Below are positions 10,615 through 19,370 of a DNA stretch of 64,000 bases, piece by piece. Below the pieces are notes generated by a model. That model did no database searches. It had not been told where the DNA came from and saw nothing but the letters and a program-made list of their open reading frames with translations. The number at the start of each line of letters is the position of its first letter. Within the stretch, counting starts at the first letter, position 1. Source of the DNA: Agromyces aureus (GTDB taxonomy: Bacteria > Actinomycetota > Actinomycetes > Actinomycetales > Microbacteriaceae); the NCBI RefSeq assembly GCF_001660485.1, contig NZ_CP013979.1:4278001-4342000 (forward strand). Direction: 5' to 3'. A program made the position numbers and the translations under genes.

Positions 10615-11781
10615 TCAGCGCGCCGGACCCGTCGGCGGCGCCACGCCCACCCGCACATGAACTCCCGAAGCCGCATCCTCGAGCGCGCGATCCAGCTCGT
10701 CGAGCGGGTAGGTCGCGCCGACGAGCCGCGCGAGCGGCACCGTGCGGTGCGCGCGCTCGAGGAACTCCACGGCCCGCACCAATTGCGACGGCGAGTAGTT
10801 GTGCACGCCCTTGAGGGTCACGAGTCGTCGCACGATCGATTCGGCGTCGAGCGCGACGGCGGGTCCTGGCGAGACGCTGCCGACGAGCACGACGACTCCA
10901 CCGATGCCGATCCGCTTGATCACCGTCTCGACGGCGGCACCCGCACCGGATGCCTCGATCGCGACGAGGATCTCGACGAGCCCTCGCTGCGCGCGGACGG
11001 CCAGCACCTCGTCGAGGTGCTCGGCAGCACCCTTCTTCGCCCTGGGGTCGGAGGCGATCGCACCGAGGCGTCGAGCCAGGGCCCGGCGACTCGCATCGGG
11101 GTCGGAGAGGATCACCTCCGCTCCGGCTTCGACGGCCATCGCCGCGGCGGTGAGCCCGACCATGCCGCCGCCGGTGATGAGCAGCAGCGCTCCGTCGAGC
11201 TCGACGGTCGCCGAGGCCGCTTCGAGGGCGGCGACGGCGGTCGCGGTGGCGCACGAGGCGGCCGCGGCGACCTCGGCGGGGAGCGCGTCGTCGACGACCA
11301 CGATCGACGAGCCCGCGCGAACGTGCACGTGCGTCGCGAAGCCGCCCGTGAGCTCCCAGCCGCGCGAGATGCGCTCGTGGCCGTATTTCGCGAGCGAGCG
11401 GCACTTCTGCTGCAGGCCGCGCTCGCACCGGTCGCACGAACCGCAGCTCACGGCGACCGACCAGACGACGCGGTCGCCGAGTTCGAGCGCACTGCCGTCG
11501 GCGCGCGTCGCGCCGTCGCCCAGCGCCACCACGCGACCGACCTGCTCGTGGCCGAGCACGAGCGGCGAGGGGGCCGAGCGGTCGCCGCGCACCGTGTGCA
11601 CGTCGGAGCCGCAGACGGTGGCGTACTCCACCTGCACGAGCGCATCGCCGGGCGCCAGCCGAATACCGGGCGTCGCCACCGATTCATGCGGCGAGCCGGG
11701 CTCGTTCCACACCATCGCGACGGGCGAGGGCGACACGTTCACGTCGAGCCCAGCCGGAAGCGTGAGCGTCATGCCCGTCAC
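10615..11781 (-). CDS. Zinc alcohol dehydrogenase of phosphonate operon (HpnZ-like)
   Basis: 388 residues, medium-chain dehydrogenase family. The catalytic zinc region is CGSDVHTVRGD and GHEQVGRVV; the structural zinc site has four Cys in CGSCDRCERGLQQKC. The Rossmann motif is GGGMVGL. It resembles the alcohol dehydrogenases proposed for phosphonate clusters (TIGR03366 type). It starts GTG 11781, overlapping the HAD hydrolase stop (GTGA); ATG 11772 is an alternative. In this operon it may handle the aldehyde left after C-P cleavage, which is inferred from position. Last gene of the operon, followed by the REP-like pair. Confidence 0.85.
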   Translation of the reverse strand: MTGMTLTLPAGLDVNVSPSPVAMVWNEPGSPHESVATPGIRLAPGDALVQVEYATVCGSDVHTVRGDRSAPSPLVLGHEQVGRVVALGDGATRADGSALELGDRVVWSVAVSCGSCDRCERGLQQKCRSLAKYGHERISRGWELTGGFATHVHVRAGSSIVVVDDALPAEVAAAASCATATAVAALEAASATVELDGALLLITGGGMVGLTAAAMAVEAGAEVILSDPDASRRALARRLGAIASDPRAKKGAAEHLDEVLAVRAQRGLVEILVAIEASGAGAAVETVIKRIGIGGVVVLVGSVSPGPAVALDAESIVRRLVTLKGVHNYSPSQLVRAVEFLERAHRTVPLARLVGATYPLDELDRALEDAASGVHVRVGVAPPTGPAR

Positions 11782-12533
11782 TCGCCGCGCAGGCCGAGCA
11801 GCGCGGGCAGGTCGCGCACGCTCTCGATCACGACGTCGGCACCCGCGTCGAGCAGTGCGGCTCGATCGTGCGCGCCGGTGAGCACGCCGACCACGAGGCC
11901 CGCGCCGGCACGGGTGCCGGTCTGGATGTCGCTCCGGGTGTCGCCCACGACGACCATCGAGGCGACGCTCGTCGCGCCCGTGCGCAGCAGGGCCGTGAGC
12001 GGCAGGTCGGGGAAGGGGCGGCCTCGGCCGGCGTCGACCGGCGAGAGCGCCAGATCGGCGAGGTCGTGCCAGCCGAGCGCGTCGAGCAGCGCATCGCGCG
12101 TGGTCGGGGCGAAGCCGGTCGTGAAGGTGACGGATGCCCCGGCGGCCCGCAGCTCGCCGATCACGTCGGCGGCACCCTCGACCTCGGCCACGCCGTCGCG
12201 CACGACGATCTCGGCGTAGGCGTCCTCGAACGCCGCGTTGGCGCGCTGGGCGGCGGCCTCGTCGCCGTCGGCGAGCACGCGGAAGACCTCGATCTTCGAC
12301 TGCCCCATGGTGTCGCGAACATACTGCAGCGAACGCTCGAACGCGTCACCGGTCGCGATGCCGCTGCGCTCGGCGGCGAGGGCGAACGCCTGCTCGACGG
12401 CGCCGTCATCGATGACGGTCGTGCCGGCCATGTCGAGCACGACGAGCTCGACGGCTCCCAGGGCGCGGCGCTCGGGAACTTCTGAGACCTCACGGGTCGC
12501 GTCGTCGCGTGCGGAGATCGTTTCGGTGGTCAT
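11778..12533 (-). CDS. Phosphonatase-like HAD hydrolase
   Basis: 251 residues. HAD motif I is LDMAGTTV (nucleophile Asp 34, general base position held by Ala 36 as in phosphonatase), motif II TTGF, and motif IV VVGDTRSD. The cap has DTMGQSKIEVFRVL, which lines up with the MGxxK-I segment of phosphonoacetaldehyde hydrolase; Lys 80 would be the Schiff-base lysine. This argues for C-P cleavage of an aldehyde such as phosphonoacetaldehyde rather than plain phosphatase action. It matches the TIGR03351 phosphonatase-like group. Overlaps both neighbours (ATGA upstream, GTGA downstream). Confidence 0.88.
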   Translation of the reverse strand: MTTETISARDDATREVSEVPERRALGAVELVVLDMAGTTVIDDGAVEQAFALAAERSGIATGDAFERSLQYVRDTMGQSKIEVFRVLADGDEAAAQRANAAFEDAYAEIVVRDGVAEVEGAADVIGELRAAGASVTFTTGFAPTTRDALLDALGWHDLADLALSPVDAGRGRPFPDLPLTALLRTGATSVASMVVVGDTRSDIQTGTRAGAGLVVGVLTGAHDRAALLDAGADVVIESVRDLPALLGLRGE

Positions 12534-13690
12534 GCGGTGCCTTTCGGAGCGGTGATGGTGGCGCGTTCGCCGGTGATTCCGGCCACGACGTGCTCGGCGA
12601 GCCCGAGGCCGGTGGTCATGCCGATGCCCGTGGTCGCCGCGATGACGCTGACGCCGGGCTCGGGTCGTTCGATGAGGAAGTCGGAGGGGCCGCTCGCGTA
12701 CACGCCCTGCCAACGCTCGAGCACCCGCACCTCGCTGAGGCCGAAGAGTTCGCGCGTGACGTCGAGGAGCGCCTCGAAGGCCGCCTCGGGCTGGAACGGC
12801 GCGATCGACGTGCCCCGGTAGTGCGTGTCGCCGACGATGAGCGACCCGTCGGGCAGTTGCGTGTACATCTGGTTGAGATCGAGCGCGGCGAGCATCGGCT
12901 CCTCGGCGTGGAGGCGCCGCTTCAGGGCGCCCGCAGCCCCGGTCGCGGCGAAGCCTCCGTAGCGCACGAGCGACCAGCCGGTGAGCAGCGGCGACGCGAG
13001 CGGCGCGGTCAGGTTGGCCGCGACGCGCAGCATGTCGAGCCCGCATCGCTCGATGCCGTGCCGTTCGGCGAGGTCGGGGTAGAGCAGGTCGAGGTCGTGG
13101 TTGGCCGCCACGACGATCTCGTCGGCGTCGATCGGGCCGCGGCTCGTCTCGACGCGGCCGGAACGCACGGCGCCGACGGCCGTGCGGTGGCGGAACTCGA
13201 CGCCCATGCGGGCCAGGTGCGCGGTGATCGCGCCGAGCGCCTGCCTCGGGTTCGCCTGCAGGTCGCGGGGCAGGAAGGCCCCGCCCACGGCGACGCCGGG
13301 CGCGATCGGCAGGCGCGCATCCGTCTCGGCGGCCGTGAGCAGCTCGACCTCGGCGCCGCGCGCGTCGGCGAACTCCGCGAGAACGGCGAACTCGTCGTCG
13401 CGACGGGCGGCGATCAGCGTTCCCGCCTCGCGCACCCAGACCCCGGCGTCGACGGCCAGCTTCAACCAGATCTCGCGCGAGGTCGAACCGAACTCGCGGG
13501 CGAGGCCGTGCTGCGGCGTGAAGCAGAGATGGCCGAAGTTGCGGATCGAGGCGCCGGTCGGCTCGCTGCCGCGCTCGATCACCACGACCCGCAGCCCGCG
13601 CGCGACCGCGGCGAGCGCGGCTCCGAGTCCGATGACTCCCGAGCCCACGACGGCGACGTCGAACTGCTCGACGCCTGCACCCCGGCTCAA
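12530..13690 (-). CDS. FAD-dependent oxidoreductase of phosphonate operon (HpnW-like)
   Basis: 386 residues, DAO family. The FAD-binding motif is VVGSGVIGLGAALAA at the N-terminus with VVIERG at the end of the second strand, and GIGMTTGLGLAE near the C-terminus. It fits the TIGR03364 family of oxidoreductases tied to phosphonate clusters. The start is probably TTG 13690, overlapping the phnE stop (TTGA); no other start fits the flavin fold. Related enzymes in phosphonate operons oxidise N-substituted aminoethylphosphonates, so a likely job here is making phosphonoacetaldehyde for the HAD enzyme. Substrate is inferred. Confidence 0.85.
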   Translation of the reverse strand: MSRGAGVEQFDVAVVGSGVIGLGAALAAVARGLRVVVIERGSEPTGASIRNFGHLCFTPQHGLAREFGSTSREIWLKLAVDAGVWVREAGTLIAARRDDEFAVLAEFADARGAEVELLTAAETDARLPIAPGVAVGGAFLPRDLQANPRQALGAITAHLARMGVEFRHRTAVGAVRSGRVETSRGPIDADEIVVAANHDLDLLYPDLAERHGIERCGLDMLRVAANLTAPLASPLLTGWSLVRYGGFAATGAAGALKRRLHAEEPMLAALDLNQMYTQLPDGSLIVGDTHYRGTSIAPFQPEAAFEALLDVTRELFGLSEVRVLERWQGVYASGPSDFLIERPEPGVSVIAATTGIGMTTGLGLAEHVVAGITGERATITAPKGTA

Positions 13691-15492
13691 CGGAACACCC
13701 GCCGCATCCAGACGGCGAGTCCCTCGACGATGAGCACCGTGGCGAGGATCATCAGCACGATCGCGGTGACGACCGCGTAATTCGAACCCTGGCCGGCGTT
13801 CAGCAGGTAGTAGCCGACGCCGCCGCCGCCCACGATGCCGAGGATGGTCGCCGCACGGATGTTCGTGTCGAGCAGGTAGAAGCTGTGCCCGATCAGCGCG
13901 CGCTTGCCCTGCGGCAGCGTGGCTGACGCGTAGACCTGGCCGCGCGTGACGCCGGTCGCCTTGAGCGCGCGTTCGGGGCCGGCTTTCACCTCTTCGAACG
14001 AGTCGGCGATGAGCTTGCCGAGCAGTCCGATGCCGCCGAAGGCGAGTGCGATGGTGCCGGCCTGGCTTCCGAGGCCGGTGATGACGATGAGCACGATGGC
14101 GAGGATCACCTCCGGCACGCCGCGGATGATCACGAGCAGCAGTCGCATCGACCCGCGAACGGTGCCGTTCGGCGCGACGTTGCGTGCGGCCAGCGAGCCG
14201 ATGACGACTGAGAAGGCGAACGAGAGCAGCGTCGCGGCGAGCGCGATGCCGATCGTGGTGCCCATGGCCCCGAACATCGTCGCGGCGTCGTAGTTGCCGA
14301 AGTTCGGCGGCCAGAACTGCACGGCGATCGCGGGCACCTTCGCCCAGAACGTCAGCAGGTCGCTCCACTGGATCTCGCAGATGACGACGCTGCCGACGAC
14401 GACGAGTACCGCGATCCACCCCCAGGCGGTGTTGCGCACGCGGGCACCGGTCCACGGTCGGCGGAGTGCTGCTTCGAGGTCGGATGCCGCGGCACGGCCG
14501 GAACCGGAGGCCGCCCCCGCGGCATCCGCACGCCCGACGCTCGCCGCGGCATCCGCACGCCCGCTCGCAGTGCCTGCCGAACGGCGGTCGCGGGCGTTCG
14601 CGACGCCGCGCACGACCCGGTCGCCGAGCCCGCGCCCCGTGGGTGCGACGCCGAGCATGGCCTTGCGCACGACGCTCGAGACGATCTCCATGACCACGCA
14701 GAGCGCGAACATGACGAGCGCGATGCCGAGGCCGAGCGAGTAGTTCAGCGACTTGAAGGCGTAGCTCATCTCGAGGCCGAGACCGGCGACGCCGACGTAG
14801 CCGAGCACGACCGAGCCGCGCAGGTTGATGTCGTTGCGGTGCAGCACGGTCGCGACCCACGAGGGCAGCACCTGGGGCAGGATGCCGCTCGTGAACTCCT
14901 GCAGCCTCGACCCGCCGGCAGCACGGATGGCGCGGCGCGGGCCCTCGTCGATCTGCTCGATCGCATCGGCGAAGAGCTTGGAGATCATGCCGATGGAGTG
15001 GATGCCGATCGCGAGGATGCCGGGCAGCGTGCCGATCGAGAACATGAGCACGAAGACCATCGCGAGCACGACGTCGGGGATCGCCCGGGTGAGCACGGTG
15101 ACGAATCGCCCGAAGGCCTGCCAGCCTGCGCCGGGCGTGGTGTTCGACGCGGCGAGGTAGGCGACCGGCACCGAGACGACGGCGGCGAAGAGCGTGCCGC
15201 AGAGCACGAGTCCGACGGTGAGACCGGTGAGGTGCAGCAGCTCGCCGAACTCGGGGAACTCGATGGTGCCGACGCGGGCGAAGAAGCGCTCGGCGTGGCC
15301 CCAGCTCTCGATCATGCCCGTGATCGAGATGCCCGACTCCATGAGCGCGAAGACGGCGACGGCGACGAGCGCGACGAGCGTGGTTCCGGCGGCGATGCGC
15401 TCGGCCGAAACGGGACGCTTGGGTGCGCGGGCCGCGACCGACGACTCGGGCGCGGAGGTCGGCGACGGTCGCGCCGGGGTGATGGTGGTCAT
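13687..15492 (-). CDS. phnE: Phosphonate ABC permease, two PhnE domains fused
   Basis: 601 residues, about twice the usual PhnE length. The N-half (about 30-300) and C-half (about 340-601) each have the permease fold with an EAA-type loop: DEGPRRAIRAAGGSRLQEFTSGILPQVL in the first and EVKAGPERALKATGVTRGQVYASATLPQ in the second. A Gly/Ala/Arg-rich linker (about 305-345) joins them. One chain can thus provide the whole membrane pore for PhnC and PhnD. ATG 15492 overlaps the phnC stop. The fusion is real in this sequence: there is no stop between the halves. Confidence 0.93.
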   Translation of the reverse strand: MTTITPARPSPTSAPESSVAARAPKRPVSAERIAAGTTLVALVAVAVFALMESGISITGMIESWGHAERFFARVGTIEFPEFGELLHLTGLTVGLVLCGTLFAAVVSVPVAYLAASNTTPGAGWQAFGRFVTVLTRAIPDVVLAMVFVLMFSIGTLPGILAIGIHSIGMISKLFADAIEQIDEGPRRAIRAAGGSRLQEFTSGILPQVLPSWVATVLHRNDINLRGSVVLGYVGVAGLGLEMSYAFKSLNYSLGLGIALVMFALCVVMEIVSSVVRKAMLGVAPTGRGLGDRVVRGVANARDRRSAGTASGRADAAASVGRADAAGAASGSGRAAASDLEAALRRPWTGARVRNTAWGWIAVLVVVGSVVICEIQWSDLLTFWAKVPAIAVQFWPPNFGNYDAATMFGAMGTTIGIALAATLLSFAFSVVIGSLAARNVAPNGTVRGSMRLLLVIIRGVPEVILAIVLIVITGLGSQAGTIALAFGGIGLLGKLIADSFEEVKAGPERALKATGVTRGQVYASATLPQGKRALIGHSFYLLDTNIRAATILGIVGGGGVGYYLLNAGQGSNYAVVTAIVLMILATVLIVEGLAVWMRRVFR

Positions 15493-16316
15493 GAGTGCGC
15501 CGCCGAGCCCAGCTGCACCGCAGCGGCGAGCTCGGTGTCGATGGCCTGCAGTTCGCCGGTCGAGGTTGCGACGCGGCCGTAGACCTCCATGACCTGGGTC
15601 TTCGAGAGCCCGGATGCCGGGGTGTCGAGCACGACCTCGCCGTGGCGGAGGCCGACGATGCGGTCGCCCCACGAGAGTGCGAGGTCGACCTGGTGCAGGC
15701 TGCAGACGACGGTGAGGCCCGCGTCCATCGCGATCTCGCGGATGAGCGCCATGACCTGGTCGCTCGACTCGGGGTCGAGCGAGGCCACCGGCTCGTCGGC
15801 GAGCAGGATCTCGGGGTTCTGCATGAGTGCGCGGGCGATGGCGACGCGCTGCTGCTGCCCACCGGAGAGGGTGTCGGCGCGCTGGTAGGCGCGGTCGAGG
15901 AGGCCGACCCGGTCGAGGTGGCCGAGCGCCACGAGCTTGAGGCGACGCGGGTACGCCCACAGCCCGAGTCGTGGGCCGCGGAGCTCGGCGAGCGCCCCCG
16001 TGAGCACGTTCTCGAGCACCGTCAGCGACGGCACGAGCTCGAACTGCTGGAAGACGAAGCCGACGCGGCTGCGCAGGGCGCGGAGGCGCCGACCCGTGAG
16101 GGACGGCACCTCCTCGCCGAGCACGCGGACCCGGCCCGAGGTGGGAGCCTCGAGTCCGACGACCTGCCGCAACAGGGTCGACTTGCCCGAGCCCGAGAGT
16201 CCGAGCAGCACGACGATCTCGCCGGGTTCCACCCGGAGGGCGACGTCGCGCAGTGCGACGGTGCGTCCGTACTCCTTGGTGAGTCCTTCGATGTCGATGA
16301 CGGGTGTCTGGCTCAT
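15489..16316 (-). CDS. phnC: Phosphonate ABC transporter ATPase
   Basis: 275 residues. Walker A GLSGSGKST, Q-loop FVFQQFELV, signature LSGGQQQR, Walker B ILLADEP and the H-loop CSLHQVD are all present. The insertion AELRGPRLGLWAYPRRLK is typical of PhnC. It energises uptake through the fused PhnE. It lies 71 bases after phnD, and the gap holds a GGTCA tandem repeat directly upstream of its weak ribosome site. Confidence 0.95.
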   Translation of the reverse strand: MSQTPVIDIEGLTKEYGRTVALRDVALRVEPGEIVVLLGLSGSGKSTLLRQVVGLEAPTSGRVRVLGEEVPSLTGRRLRALRSRVGFVFQQFELVPSLTVLENVLTGALAELRGPRLGLWAYPRRLKLVALGHLDRVGLLDRAYQRADTLSGGQQQRVAIARALMQNPEILLADEPVASLDPESSDQVMALIREIAMDAGLTVVCSLHQVDLALSWGDRIVGLRHGEVVLDTPASGLSKTQVMEVYGRVATSTGELQAIDTELAAAVQLGSAAHS

Positions 16317-16387: not shown

Positions 16388-17314
16388 TCAGCCCTGGCAC
16401 TGCTCCGCTTCGGTCTTCTCGCAGATGTCGCGGATGGTGTCGTAGTACGCGTCGTCGACCGGCGAGGTCGCGAAGAACACGCTGCGGAACCCGTCGGAGT
16501 CGGCCGACTCGATGCCCGAGGCGATGATGTCGTCGATCGTGACCTGGCCGAGGATCTCGGTCAGCTGCGCCTTGAGCTCGTCGGGAAGCGTGTCCGAGAC
16601 GACGATCGGGGCGCCGGGGACCATCGTCTCGGCGACGACGGTGACCTTGTCGCTCTTCTCGACCTCGCTGTCCTCGGCGAAGCCGGCGTCGCACTCGACG
16701 CCCTCGCCGACCTTGGTCACCGAGACGTCGTGCTTGCCGGCGAAGACCGGCGTGACGTCGGTCTCGGGGTCGATGCCCTCTTCGAGGAGGTTGTACGACG
16801 GGAAGAGGTAGCCCGAGGTCGACGACGGGTCGACGAAGCAGACCTTCTTGCCCTCGAAGCCGGCGAGGTCGGTGATGTCGCTGCCCTTGGGCACGATCGC
16901 CTGCGAGTAGTACCCGGGCTCCTGGCCCTCGGCCGTGATGATCGACGAGACGGGCGTGATCGCCGCACCGTTGTTCTTCGCGGTGACGTAGGTGAACCCC
17001 GAGAACGAGGCGACGTCGATCTTGCCGGCGACCGCGGCCTCGATGAGCGCGGCGTAGTCGGTCGACTCGTGGTACTCGACGGTCTTGCCGGTCTCCTGGG
17101 CGATGTAGTCCATGAGCGGCTGGTAGTTGGTCTCGGTGTCGACCGAGTCGGGAACGACGCCGAACACGAGCGTGTTCTCGTCGACGGCGAACGAGCCGGT
17201 GTCTCCTGACGTGCTGGTGCCGGCTTCAGCGGTGCTGGAGCACGCGGCGAGGGTGACGGCGAGCGCTCCCACGCCGACGAGGGCGAGGAGGGAGCGGGTG
17301 AAGCGCGTGGACAT
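16388..17314 (-). CDS. phnD: Phosphonate-binding lipoprotein
   Basis: 308 residues. Signal peptide with lipobox LAAC (Cys 25). The mature part is a PhnD/SsuA-type binding protein: VFGVVPDS near the start, then TNYQPLMDYIAQETGKTVEYHESTDYAALIEA (broken here only for family pattern), DVASFSGF, and KKVCFVDPSSTSGYLFP, the segment that holds the phosphonate group. The ATG follows GAAAGG. First gene of the operon, divergent from the GntR regulator. It is anchored outside the membrane and feeds PhnE. Confidence 0.93.
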   Translation of the reverse strand: MSTRFTRSLLALVGVGALAVTLAACSSTAEAGTSTSGDTGSFAVDENTLVFGVVPDSVDTETNYQPLMDYIAQETGKTVEYHESTDYAALIEAAVAGKIDVASFSGFTYVTAKNNGAAITPVSSIITAEGQEPGYYSQAIVPKGSDITDLAGFEGKKVCFVDPSSTSGYLFPSYNLLEEGIDPETDVTPVFAGKHDVSVTKVGEGVECDAGFAEDSEVEKSDKVTVVAETMVPGAPIVVSDTLPDELKAQLTEILGQVTIDDIIASGIESADSDGFRSVFFATSPVDDAYYDTIRDICEKTEAEQCQG

Positions 17315-17486: not shown

Positions 17487-18236
17487 GTGCCCATCAGTGT
17501 CTACAAAGCCATCGCCGACGACCTCCGACAGCGCATCGCGAGCGGCCAGCTCGCCCCCGGAGACGACGTGCCCACCGAGGGCGAGCTCGCCCAGCAATGG
17601 AGCACCTCGCGCGGCCCGATCCGCAACGCCCTCGCCGAGCTCCGCGCCGAGGGCCTGATCGAGACCACCCGGGGCCGCCCGAGCCGGGTCGTGCGGCGCA
17701 AGGCCCACCAGGCCGTCGACGTCTCGATCCCCTTCACCAAGTGGGCCCGTGAGATGGGCGCGACGCCCGGCGCGCACACCCAGGAGGTCTCCCTCCGGCG
17801 CGCCGACGACGACCACGTCGAGCTCCTCCGCATCGAGCCCGGCGACCTGATCGTCGAGGTGACCCGACTCCGCAGCCTCGATGGGCGCCCCACGATGCTC
17901 GAGCGGCTGGCCTTCGTCGAGGAGGTCGGGCGGGTGCTCTTCGACGTCGACCTCGACACGGTCTCGATCACCGACTACCTGGCCGAGCGCGGGCATCCGT
18001 ACGCCGAGGTCGACCACGAGATCGACGCGGTCGCCGCCGACGAGCTCGACGCCCGCCTGCTCGAGGTCGAGCTCGGCTCGCCGATCCTGCGCCTGCGACG
18101 CGTGACGCGCGGCCGCGACGGGCGCGTGTTCGAGGCATCCGACGACCGCTATCGCAGCGACATCGTGCGCTTCACCGTCTCGGCCTCTGGGCGCGCCATC
18201 TCGGGCGAGCACTTCATCCGCCCGGTCGGCGAGTAG
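17487..18236 (+). CDS. GntR/HutC-family regulator (PhnF-like)
   Basis: 249 residues. The winged helix is at about 1-72 (VYKAIADDLRQRIASGQLAPG, then STSRGPIRNALAELRAEGLIE), followed by a UTRA effector domain from about 90 (RIEPGDLIVEVTRLRSLDGRPTMLE to ISGEHFIRP). HutC-type regulators bind a small effector and usually repress neighbouring catabolic genes. It is divergent from phnD with several inverted repeats between, so it most likely controls the phosphonate operon and itself. GTG 17487 is supported by the upstream -10. Confidence 0.9.
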   Translation: MPISVYKAIADDLRQRIASGQLAPGDDVPTEGELAQQWSTSRGPIRNALAELRAEGLIETTRGRPSRVVRRKAHQAVDVSIPFTKWAREMGATPGAHTQEVSLRRADDDHVELLRIEPGDLIVEVTRLRSLDGRPTMLERLAFVEEVGRVLFDVDLDTVSITDYLAERGHPYAEVDHEIDAVAADELDARLLEVELGSPILRLRRVTRGRDGRVFEASDDRYRSDIVRFTVSASGRAISGEHFIRPVGE

Positions 18237-18272: not shown

Positions 18273-19166
18273 TCACGCCGCGATCAGCAGCACCCCCGCG
18301 ACGACGATGACGGATGCCGCGACCCTCGCCCATCCGCGGCCCTCGCGCAGCACGAGCGCACCGAACGCGCTGACGAGCACGACGCTGACCTCCCGCATGG
18401 GCGCCACGAGGGCCACCGGCGCGAGCGTCACGGCGACGAGCACGAGGATGTACGAGAGCGGCGACAGCGCGCCGAACGCGAGGATCCTCACCCAGTGCGT
18501 GCGCCCCACGCGGCCGAGCTCGCGACGACGCCGGCCGAGCAAGGCGGAGAACAGCACGAGCTCGCCGAGCGTGCAGCCGACCATGAAGGCGACGGGCGGC
18601 ACGTCCCACGAGCGCACGACGTTCGCGTCCCACAGCGTGTAGGCGGCGATCGCGACGCCGGTCGCGATGCCCCAGAGGATCGCTGGATCGGGGCCCCGCC
18701 GGCGCGTCCCGGCGCCACCGAGCGAAGTACTGCCGCCCACCGGGCCGCGATCGAGCAGGCCGATCACGACGACTCCGACGAGGATCGCCGCGATGCCCAC
18801 GAGCGCCCAGCCCGACGGCCGTTCGCCGAGCACGAGCACGGCCACGAGCACCGTGATCAGCGGGCCCGTTCCGCGCGCTGTCGCGTAGACGGTCGACAGC
18901 ATCCCGGTGGCGTAGCCGCGCTGCAGCACCAGCATGTAGCCGCAGTGCAGCACGGCCGAGACGCCGGCGCCCAACGCGAGGCCACCGACATCCGCGGTGC
19001 CGATGCCAGCCGTGAACGGCACCATCGGCAGCCAGAGGAGCGTGCTCGCGAGCGCACCCCACCAGAGGAAGGGCATGCCGATGCGGCTGACGCCGTGGGC
19101 GAGGATGTTCCACGCCGAGTGGCACACGGCGGCGGCGAGGACGAGGACGAGCGCAGGAACGGACAC
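18273..19166 (-). CDS. EamA/DMT-family transporter under riboswitch
   Basis: 297 residues with ten hydrophobic segments in two five-helix EamA halves (about 1-140 and 165-297; the second half ends VAASVIVVAGVLLIAA). The N-terminus LVLVLAAAVCHSAWNILAHG is typical. DMT proteins move small metabolites. The leader matches a guanidine-I riboswitch, so the likely cargo is guanidine or a related compound, even though the known guanidine exporters are four-helix SMR proteins. GTG 19166 follows GAAGGG. It is convergent with the GntR gene. Function from the leader is an inference. Confidence 0.85.
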   Translation of the reverse strand: MSVPALVLVLAAAVCHSAWNILAHGVSRIGMPFLWWGALASTLLWLPMVPFTAGIGTADVGGLALGAGVSAVLHCGYMLVLQRGYATGMLSTVYATARGTGPLITVLVAVLVLGERPSGWALVGIAAILVGVVVIGLLDRGPVGGSTSLGGAGTRRRGPDPAILWGIATGVAIAAYTLWDANVVRSWDVPPVAFMVGCTLGELVLFSALLGRRRRELGRVGRTHWVRILAFGALSPLSYILVLVAVTLAPVALVAPMREVSVVLVSAFGALVLREGRGWARVAASVIVVAGVLLIAA

Positions 19167-19202
19167 GGGACCCTTCGGTGCGTCGCGGGCGCGACGGACG
19201 GG

Positions 19203-19305
19203 GTCCTCCGGGCTTTTGTCCTGTCAGATGACGGCCGCCTCTGGCGGTGGCCGTGGCGCCGCTCGGACCAGTCGGATCTCGCGATCCCGGAACCCTAGGC
19301 GCTAT
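19203..19305 (-). promoter_or_regulatory. Guanidine-I (ykkC) riboswitch candidate
   Basis: Three conserved ykkC blocks are present in the right order on the minus strand: CTAGGGTTCCGG (19298-19287), ACTGGTCCGAGC (19272-19261) and ACAAAAGCCCGGAGGA (19219-19204). Between the second and third is a GC hairpin (CCGCC-AGA-GGCGG inside a longer stem). The element ends about 37 bases before the GTG of the EamA gene. Known family: RF00442. Subtypes 2a/2b that bind ppGpp or PRPP share these blocks, so the ligand needs a covariance-model test. Confidence 0.85.
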
Positions 19306-19370
19306 CGCGGATCACGGTAGCACGCGCGGGTGAACCGGTCCGTTCACCCTCGCGCAACCCTGCGGACCCC

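What the first reader, a model, noticed from the sequence alone, without database searches (positions are those of the whole stretch)
18273..19305. Guanidine-I riboswitch controlling an EamA-type transporter
Three conserved ykkC blocks are in order and spaced as in known examples, ending just before the gene. Known guanidine exporters are small SMR proteins, urea carboxylase and ABC systems. A ten-helix EamA protein here would be a different exporter class for guanidine, or a new cargo for the aptamer family.
Basis: partly seen in the sequence, partly recalled or inferred. Interest (0 to 1): 0.8.

Follow-up and report, generated by a model that had tools for sequence, protein, structure and literature searches.

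The report
Orphan ykkC-2d riboswitch before EamA transporter
An RNA switch from the guanidine-riboswitch family sits before a membrane transporter gene, but it fits a branch of that family whose trigger molecule is unknown, and its company in related bacteria suggests the trigger is tied to the breakdown of phosphonates.

Summary
The RNA is real: a full-length RF00442 match at 19309-19203 (-), 54 bits, E 3.7e-9, just upstream of a ten-helix EamA gene (19166-18273). It is below the 63-bit gathering score and is not guanidine-I: position 46, the published subtype marker, is C instead of A in 34 of 34 aligned relatives. It fits ykkC subtype 2d, a published orphan class upstream of EamA (phn_DUF6) and TauE transporters; both gene types follow this RNA in relatives. 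So it is a new member of a known orphan class.

Added here: a covarying start-site hairpin overlapping the aptamer's 3' end (translational ON switch inferred), and a strong phosphonate link. The FAD oxidase TIGR03364 is over cut-off in 32 of 32 family genomes with the RNA against 55 of 267 without (within-genus p 1.7e-8). Two pocket positions match the phosphate site of the PRPP aptamer. A phosphonate-linked ligand is my leading hypothesis for Actinomycetota. Against it as a class-wide ligand: 6 of 8 proteobacterial-type genomes lack TIGR01098 phosphonate uptake over cut-off.

The parts
19203..19309 (-). ykkC-family aptamer (P1, P2, P3), subtype 2d type
   Evidence: RF00442 54 bits, full length; alignment of 34 relatives; pair counts
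19261..19262 (-). G-C equivalent to guanidine-I G45-A46 / PRPP G48-C49 (subtype marker; C here)
   Evidence: invariant in 34 of 34; numbering from PMC6031431 passages
19227..19227 (-). C equivalent to PRPP C78 / guanidine-I G72
   Evidence: invariant in 34 of 34; group table
19204..19209 (-). GGAGGA, conserved 3' end of aptamer; its second GGA is also the 5' strand of the start-site hairpin
19168..19206 (-). expression-platform hairpin: GGACCC (19206-19201) pairs with GGGUCC (19173-19168), overlapping the ribosome site GAAGGG (19176-19171)
   Evidence: same-locus pairing -13.0 against -11.5 kcal/mol permuted, 0 of 10000 permutations as good; coordinates
18273..19166 (-). EamA (DMT) transporter, 297 aa, phn_DUF6-like
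   Evidence: PF00892 64 bits; TIGR03340 105.5 bits, below its cut-off 288; AlphaFold model and PDB fold matches
17487..18236 (+). GntR/UTRA regulator resembling HutC/PhnF (both below cut-off), between EamA and phnD
16388..17314 (-). PhnD-type phosphate/phosphite/phosphonate binding protein
   Evidence: TIGR01098 170 bits over cut-off 112
15489..16316 (-). PhnC ATPase
   Evidence: TIGR02315 285 bits over cut-off 266
13687..15498 (-). two PhnE permease domains in one frame (exact start not determined)
   Evidence: TIGR01097 413 bits, two stretches
12530..13690 (-). FAD oxidoreductase TIGR03364 (PbfD1-type aminophosphonate oxidase); start approximate
   Evidence: 379.5 bits over cut-off 285
11778..12560 (-). 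PhnX-like HAD hydrolase TIGR03351; start approximate
   Evidence: 223 bits over cut-off 219
10615..11781 (-). phosphonate-associated alcohol dehydrogenase TIGR03366
   Evidence: 370.7 bits over cut-off 328

Best explanation
The element is a ykkC subtype-2d riboswitch. Shown: a covarying ykkC aptamer whose conserved 3' end (GGAGGA) overlaps the 5' strand of a conserved, covarying hairpin that covers the ribosome-binding site of the EamA gene. Inferred: without ligand the hairpin forms and blocks translation; ligand binding holds the 3' end in the aptamer, frees the ribosome site and turns the transporter on, as in other ykkC riboswitches. Inferred: in Actinomycetota the transporter serves AEP-type phosphonate breakdown (PhnCDE import, FAD oxidase to phosphonoacetaldehyde, HAD hydrolysis), most likely as an outlet for a phosphonate intermediate or an unusable phosphonate, and the ligand is a small phosphorus-bearing molecule of that pathway (phosphonoacetaldehyde, AEP or N-methyl-AEP being first to test). 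My split: subtype 2d identity about 0.93; translational ON switch about 0.7; phosphonate-linked ligand about 0.35.
For: Aptamer. Not guanidine-I: C at the marker position and at the 72/78 position; 0 of 299 family genomes over the cut-off. 2d gene pair reproduced: 37 of 38 loci have an EamA start (by motif) behind the RNA and one (L010) a TauE; PF01925 TauE confirmed behind L010, L086, L160, L121. RNA and EamA orthologue occur in the same 9 of 41 same-genus genomes. Platform. Phosphonate link: TIGR03364 over cut-off in 32 of 32 RNA+ against 55 of 267 RNA- genomes of one 299-genome sample, within-genus stratified exact p 1.7e-8; in the genus sample 9 of 9 against 7 of 32, p 3.3e-5; phnD and the FAD gene within 10 kb in 25 of 37 fetched neighbourhoods, and in the window; the 12 other genomes each carry the FAD gene elsewhere. 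Pocket: the invariant G, C and C match PRPP G48, C49 and C78, which contact the 5-phosphate or its metal (PMC6031431 passage).
Against: Ligand binding was not tested. In 8 proteobacterial-type loci no phn genes were seen in the stretches held (up to 8 kb), 0 of 8 genomes have TIGR03364 over cut-off, and 2 of 8 have TIGR01098 over cut-off. Two of 11 further actinobacterial-type genomes (L120, L160) have neither. Adjacent genes may be gained and lost as one block, so co-occurrence is partly linkage; and the strict filters may have missed RNAs. The authors of the class judged the 2d consensus closest to guanidine-I and suggested a small toxic charged ligand, against my pocket reading. Minimum-energy folding alone shows no excess stability (z -0.38). 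The EamA scores far below the TIGR03340 cut-off.
Confidence: 0.58

Rival explanations
1. A true guanidine-I riboswitch driving a new EamA-class guanidine exporter.
For: RF00442 is the matching Rfam family, 54 bits; phn_DUF6 transporters and guanidine transporters share the drug/metabolite transporter superfamily (PMC5912903 passage).
Against: Below gathering score; C instead of A46, C instead of G72, P3 5' strand about 2 nt longer; the 5 guanidine-I type RNAs met in the phylum and order searches all keep A46; none of the 10 nearby proteins scanned looks like guanidine metabolism.
Confidence: 0.05
2. Subtype 2d senses a small toxic charged compound that is not a phosphonate (the published suggestion); the phosphonate link is local linkage in Actinomycetota, or reflects a toxic amine or aldehyde by-product of the FAD oxidase.
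For: Published suggestion; best PDB fold match is the choline importer LicB; 6 of 8 proteobacterial-type genomes lack TIGR01098 over cut-off; 2d RNAs also precede TauE.
Against: All 12 genomes with a non-adjacent RNA still carry the FAD gene; positions of the PRPP phosphate site are kept.
Confidence: 0.25
3. Subtype 2d senses a common phosphorylated metabolite (PRPP-like or another sugar or acid phosphate), and the transporter exports a related compound whatever the bacterium.
For: Pocket positions as in PRPP- and ppGpp-type RNAs; the proteobacterial form has CACC as in PRPP-type RNAs; conserved CGAYA just 5' of P1 is a flank such as 2a-2c have; the triose-phosphate translocator shares the transporter's fold.
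Against: The phosphonate-gene association in Actinomycetota would be left unexplained. Whether a P0 helix forms was not tested.
Confidence: 0.2

Closest known systems
ykkC subtype 2d orphan riboswitch (Sherlock et al. 2018; Sherlock and Breaker 2020)
   Same: ykkC scaffold, not guanidine-I at the marker position, upstream of EamA/phn_DUF6 and TauE transporters
   Different: No difference shown; the published 2d consensus was not seen, so no residue-by-residue comparison was made
Guanidine-I riboswitch (RF00442, ykkC subtype 1)
   Same: Overall P1-P2-P3 fold, CUAGGGUUCCG, CUGGUCCGAG and GGAnAAAAGCC blocks
   Different: C for A46, C for G72, P3 5' strand about 2 nt longer, GGAGGA for GGGAGA, gene context
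PRPP riboswitch (ykkC subtype 2b)
   Same: C at the 49 and 78 equivalents, long-range C-G pair, P3 5' strand length within its range
   Different: PRPP RNAs precede purine genes; U at the C77 equivalent in actinobacterial 2d; P0 helix not tested here
TIGR03340 phn_DUF6 / DMT transporters
   Same: Best NCBIfam match for all eight 2d EamA proteins scanned (window, seven); DMT fold
   Different: 103-137 bits against a cut-off of 288, so not the curated family itself

Membership tests
Guanidine-I riboswitch (subtype 1) | RF00442 score at or above gathering (63 bits) | tested here: not met
   54 bits; absent from the gathering scan
Guanidine-I riboswitch (subtype 1) | A at position 46 | tested here: not met
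   C in 34 of 34 aligned relatives incl. the window; 5 of 5 guanidine-I type RNAs have A
Guanidine-I riboswitch (subtype 1) | Guanidine-metabolism gene downstream | tested here: not met
   EamA, then phosphonate genes
Guanidine-I riboswitch (subtype 1) | Binds guanidine | not testable with these tools
   needs in-line probing
ykkC subtype 2d | ykkC scaffold with conserved blocks and pairing | tested here: met
ykkC subtype 2d | Upstream of EamA/phn_DUF6 or TauE transporters | tested here: met
   38 of 38 loci by motif (one TauE); PF01925 in 4 relatives; phn_DUF6 best but sub-cut-off hit
ykkC subtype 2d | Agreement with the published 2d consensus | not tested
   figures are not held and the 2019 paper is not held
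ykkC subtypes 2a/2b (ppGpp, PRPP) | Amino-acid or purine genes downstream | tested here: not met
   EamA or TauE in 38 of 38 loci
ykkC subtypes 2a/2b (ppGpp, PRPP) | P0 helix formed by the aptamer ends | not tested
   conserved CGAYA 5' of P1 and GGAGGA 3' of P3 noted; pairing between them not examined
EamA / DMT transporter | PF00892 over gathering score and DMT fold | tested here: met
   64 bits against 28.2; DMT structures at E <= 1e-5
TIGR03340 phn_DUF6 | Score over the curated cut-off (288 bits) | tested here: not met
   105.5 bits

The most novel reading that the evidence does not exclude
Subtype 2d, at least in Actinomycetota, is a riboswitch for a natural phosphonate (phosphonoacetaldehyde, 2-aminoethylphosphonate or N-methyl-AEP), bound where PRPP aptamers hold the 5-phosphate, and it opens an EamA or TauE outlet when the phosphonate pathway backs up. 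From memory I know of no riboswitch for a natural compound with a carbon-phosphorus bond; the searches listed none, and the one phosphonate mention opened (PMC11477304) is a reference on synthetic glmS ligands.
Probability: 0.28. Interest if true: 0.85.

Novelty: new member of a known kind. Interest (0 to 1): 0.55.

Why it matters
Subtype 2d was the ykkC branch still without a ligand in the 2020 review. The co-occurrence with one phosphonate oxidase, together with the phosphate-site residues, turns an open ligand hunt into a short list that one set of binding assays can test. If a phosphonate is the ligand, it would also give a role to a family of EamA transporters named only by association.

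Tried and rejected
Guanidine-I: rejected on the marker and score (above). Minimum-energy folding as evidence: no signal (z -0.38), and RNAalifold preferred an alternative long-range pairing for A1; I relied on covariation for the known scaffold instead. The LPR69 Rfam hit upstream (23 bits against 40) was taken as chance. MAFFT misplaced part of the platform alignment A2, so the platform was tested by same-locus against permuted pairing and not by column counts. No solved structure by sequence (best E 0.84). A search for guanidine contacts in PMC11661666 gave none; which guanidine-I bases touch guanidine is therefore recalled, apart from A46. Passages of PMC9971707, PMC10043782 and PMC12366243 added nothing on 2d.

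Rows dropped: L032 and L036 were left out of alignment A1 because the script's anchors missed them. L036 departs: GAGC at the marker but GGGGGA for GGAGGA, and a weak platform pairing of -5.0. Four identical platform rows were collapsed (38 to 34). In one search position 46 is preselected as C for loci L106 and up, because the scan pattern demanded it, so only the 34 loci of A1 and the guanidine-I set test that position; one ppGpp-type locus was missed by the script, one of 5 guanidine-I and 2 of 18 PRPP-type rows read A at 72/78 (possibly misparsed). PRPP and ppGpp labels there were given by me from the first residues of the downstream proteins (recalled). Of the 27 loci put, titles of some (e.g. 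L186, L203, L206, L209, L210, L218, L224) were not shown; they were classed by RNA and protein type.

Full report
WHAT IS THERE. On the minus strand at 19309-19203 lies a full-length match to RF00442 (54 bits, E 3.7e-9), the only one at E <= 0.001 in the 4.37-Mb genome. It is under the gathering score of 63, so the standard scan does not list it. It ends 36 nt before the start codon of a 297-aa EamA protein, 19166-18273. The genus is probably Agromyces: one same-genus contig of 44,317 bases (G027) has the same length as a contig titled Agromyces salentinus (L171).

RELATIVES. RF00442 finds the RNA in 9 of 41 same-genus genomes and in 32 of 299 genomes of the family sample, 15 of 85 genera, 0 over the cut-off; both searches used Infernal's stricter filters. 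Together these are 38 genomes. In the genus sample the EamA orthologue occurs in exactly the same 9 of 41 genomes. With a model of the aptamer (R1), 12 of 347 genomes of the order sample and 15 of 396 of the phylum sample match; outside the family only G650 and G1038 score over 100 bits, and several of the weaker ones are guanidine-I or other forms. In 38 of 38 loci read the RNA is followed, 30-75 nt after the start of GGAGGA, by a start codon of an EamA-like frame or (L010) a TauE frame, found by motif; two start codons were corrected by hand and the frame in L027 is broken.

STRUCTURE. In 34 aligned aptamers, counted on the known scaffold, 96.4% of cells pair; 12 of 26 pairs show changes on both sides, and 0 of 500 shuffles reach any of the five measures. 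The long-range C-G pair is present in 34 of 34. The part after P2 reads CAUCUGACAGGACAAAAGCCCGGAGGA in most, CAUCUGAACGGACAAAAGCCUGGAGGA in a coupled second version. CGAYA just before P1 is also conserved (33 or 34 of 34 at each position).

SUBTYPE. The published way to split ykkC RNAs is position 46: A in guanidine-I, pyrimidine in 2a and 2b (PMC6031431 passages). Here it is C in 34 of 34. Position 72/78 is C in 44 of 44 actinobacterial relatives, against G in 4 of 5 guanidine-I type RNAs and C in 16 of 18 PRPP-type and 10 of 11 parsed ppGpp-type RNAs. The P3 5' strand is about 2 nt longer than in guanidine-I, within the PRPP range. The review PMC7266159 (passages read) states that subtype 2d regulates EamA (first called phn_DUF6) and TauE transporters with an undetermined ligand; PMC5912903 (passages) names phn_DUF6 and suggests a small charged toxic compound. 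The best NCBIfam hit of the window's EamA is TIGR03340 phn_DUF6 (105.5 bits, cut-off 288), as for seven relatives (103-137 bits); TauE (PF01925) follows the RNA in L010, L086, L160 and L121. I therefore file it as subtype 2d. The 2d consensus itself could not be compared: three papers looked up (2017, 2018 PNAS, 2019) are not held and figures are not held.

HOW IT SWITCHES. The conserved GGAGGA end of the aptamer runs into a hairpin whose 3' strand covers the GAAGGG ribosome site. Partner strands co-vary across loci (GGACCC/GGGUCC, GGAUCC/GGAUCC, GGAACC/GGUUCC, GGAGCC/GGCUC). Same-locus pairing averages -13.0 kcal/mol against -11.5 (sd 0.29) when strands are permuted among 34 distinct loci; 0 of 10000 permutations are as good. 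None of the 38 platforms holds a run of four T, so translation control rather than termination is inferred. That the ligand turns the gene on is inferred from known ykkC switches (guanidine-I, 2a and 2b are ON switches; PMC6031431).

TRANSPORTER. The AlphaFold model (35 sequences, mean pLDDT 91.4) has the DMT fold: LicB, 5i20 (YddG, name recalled), nucleotide-sugar transporters and the triose-phosphate translocator match. H16, H74, R98, D180, R258 and E259 are invariant in 35 of 35 proteins. Direction of transport is not known.

PHOSPHONATE LINK. The window's neighbouring cluster encodes a GntR regulator, PhnD, PhnC, a double PhnE, the TIGR03364 FAD oxidoreductase, a PhnX-like hydrolase and the TIGR03366 dehydrogenase. 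PMC10590968 (abstract and passages) shows that FAD enzymes of this kind (PbfD1 is annotated TIGR03364) oxidise N-methyl-AEP to phosphonoacetaldehyde. PhnD and the FAD gene lie within 10 kb of the RNA in 25 of 37 fetched neighbourhoods and in the window; in all 25, EamA and phnD share the strand, in 12 with no gene of the query set between them. In L107 and L190 EamA is followed on its strand by the FAD, HAD and ADH genes. Genome by genome, TIGR03364 is over its cut-off in 32 of 32 RNA+ and 55 of 267 RNA- genomes (Fisher 5.6e-20); within the 15 genera that have the RNA, 32 of 32 against 15 of 43, stratified exact p 1.7e-8. In the genus sample it is 9 of 9 against 7 of 32 (p 3.3e-5). So all 38 RNA+ genomes of the two samples have it, including the 12 whose RNA is not near the cluster. 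Of 11 further actinobacterial-type loci (10 of the 50 so classed, plus L181), 9 genomes have it; the two without are L120, Mycobacterium tilburgii, and L160, Mycolicibacterium sphagni, which also lack TIGR01098 over cut-off.

AGAINST. Eight proteobacterial-type loci (EamA of the same phn_DUF6-like kind; five with proteobacterial titles seen) show no phn neighbours in the stretches held, by tblastn with the window's proteins and by eye; 0 of 8 genomes have TIGR03364 over cut-off and 2 of 8 have TIGR01098 over cut-off. Eight loci with another EamA subfamily also have 0 of 8 for TIGR03364, though 6 of 8 for TIGR01098 (5 of 14 control genomes also have TIGR01098). Some are draft or metagenome assemblies. 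Either the ligand differs there, or the phosphonate link is a local use of a broader signal.

POCKET. In the PRPP structure G48 (N1, N2) and C78 (N4) bind the 5-phosphate and C49 (O2) its metal (PMC6031431 passage). All three equivalents are invariant in the 34 relatives. This favours a phosphorus-bearing ligand but is a reading by alignment, not a structure, and C77 of that site is U here.

PRINT. In the held library I found no paper that gives a 2d ligand or a riboswitch for a natural phosphonate: searches, judged from listings and the passages named (one search listed 30 of 74 papers, none of the 30 with the word riboswitch; one search opened PMC11477304, listed with both words).

Noticed in passing
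L089, L094, L106, L109, L125, L161, L189, L207, L217, L222: Further ykkC-like RNAs with GAGC at the marker but another P3 (starting CACC or CAUC, ending CCUCGAG or GAGGGG-like) upstream of a different EamA subfamily (LWSSSWVLI-like start; PF00892 confirmed for L106, L207, L094; the rest by eye), in Actinomycetota and Anaerolineae where titles were shown; possibly a separate 2d branch or a new subtype. L087 has a similar RNA, gene not determined.
   Followed up: partly
L084: A ykkC-like RNA (49 bits with the 2d model) upstream of an MFS transporter (PF07690) in a same-order genome.
   Followed up: partly
A1 columns 100, 101 and 113: Two coupled versions of P3 within 2d (CA with C; AC or AG with U); by eye they follow neither gene type nor phosphonate adjacency. 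They may reflect an exchange in the pocket or S-turn.
   Followed up: no
L027:1643-2540 (genome G145): The EamA frame behind an intact 2d RNA stops after 156 aa; broken gene or assembly error. Described only.
   Followed up: no
L120 (Mycobacterium tilburgii): 2d RNA with no intact TauE or EamA frame found behind it, in a genome that also lacks TIGR03364 over cut-off.
   Followed up: no
L085, L088, L090, L091, L092: Guanidine-I type RNAs (GAGAG) picked up by the 2d model in other actinobacterial groups; behind some, by eye, ureohydrolase-like (L085, L091), isochorismatase-like (L088) and solute-symporter-like (L092) genes.
   Followed up: no
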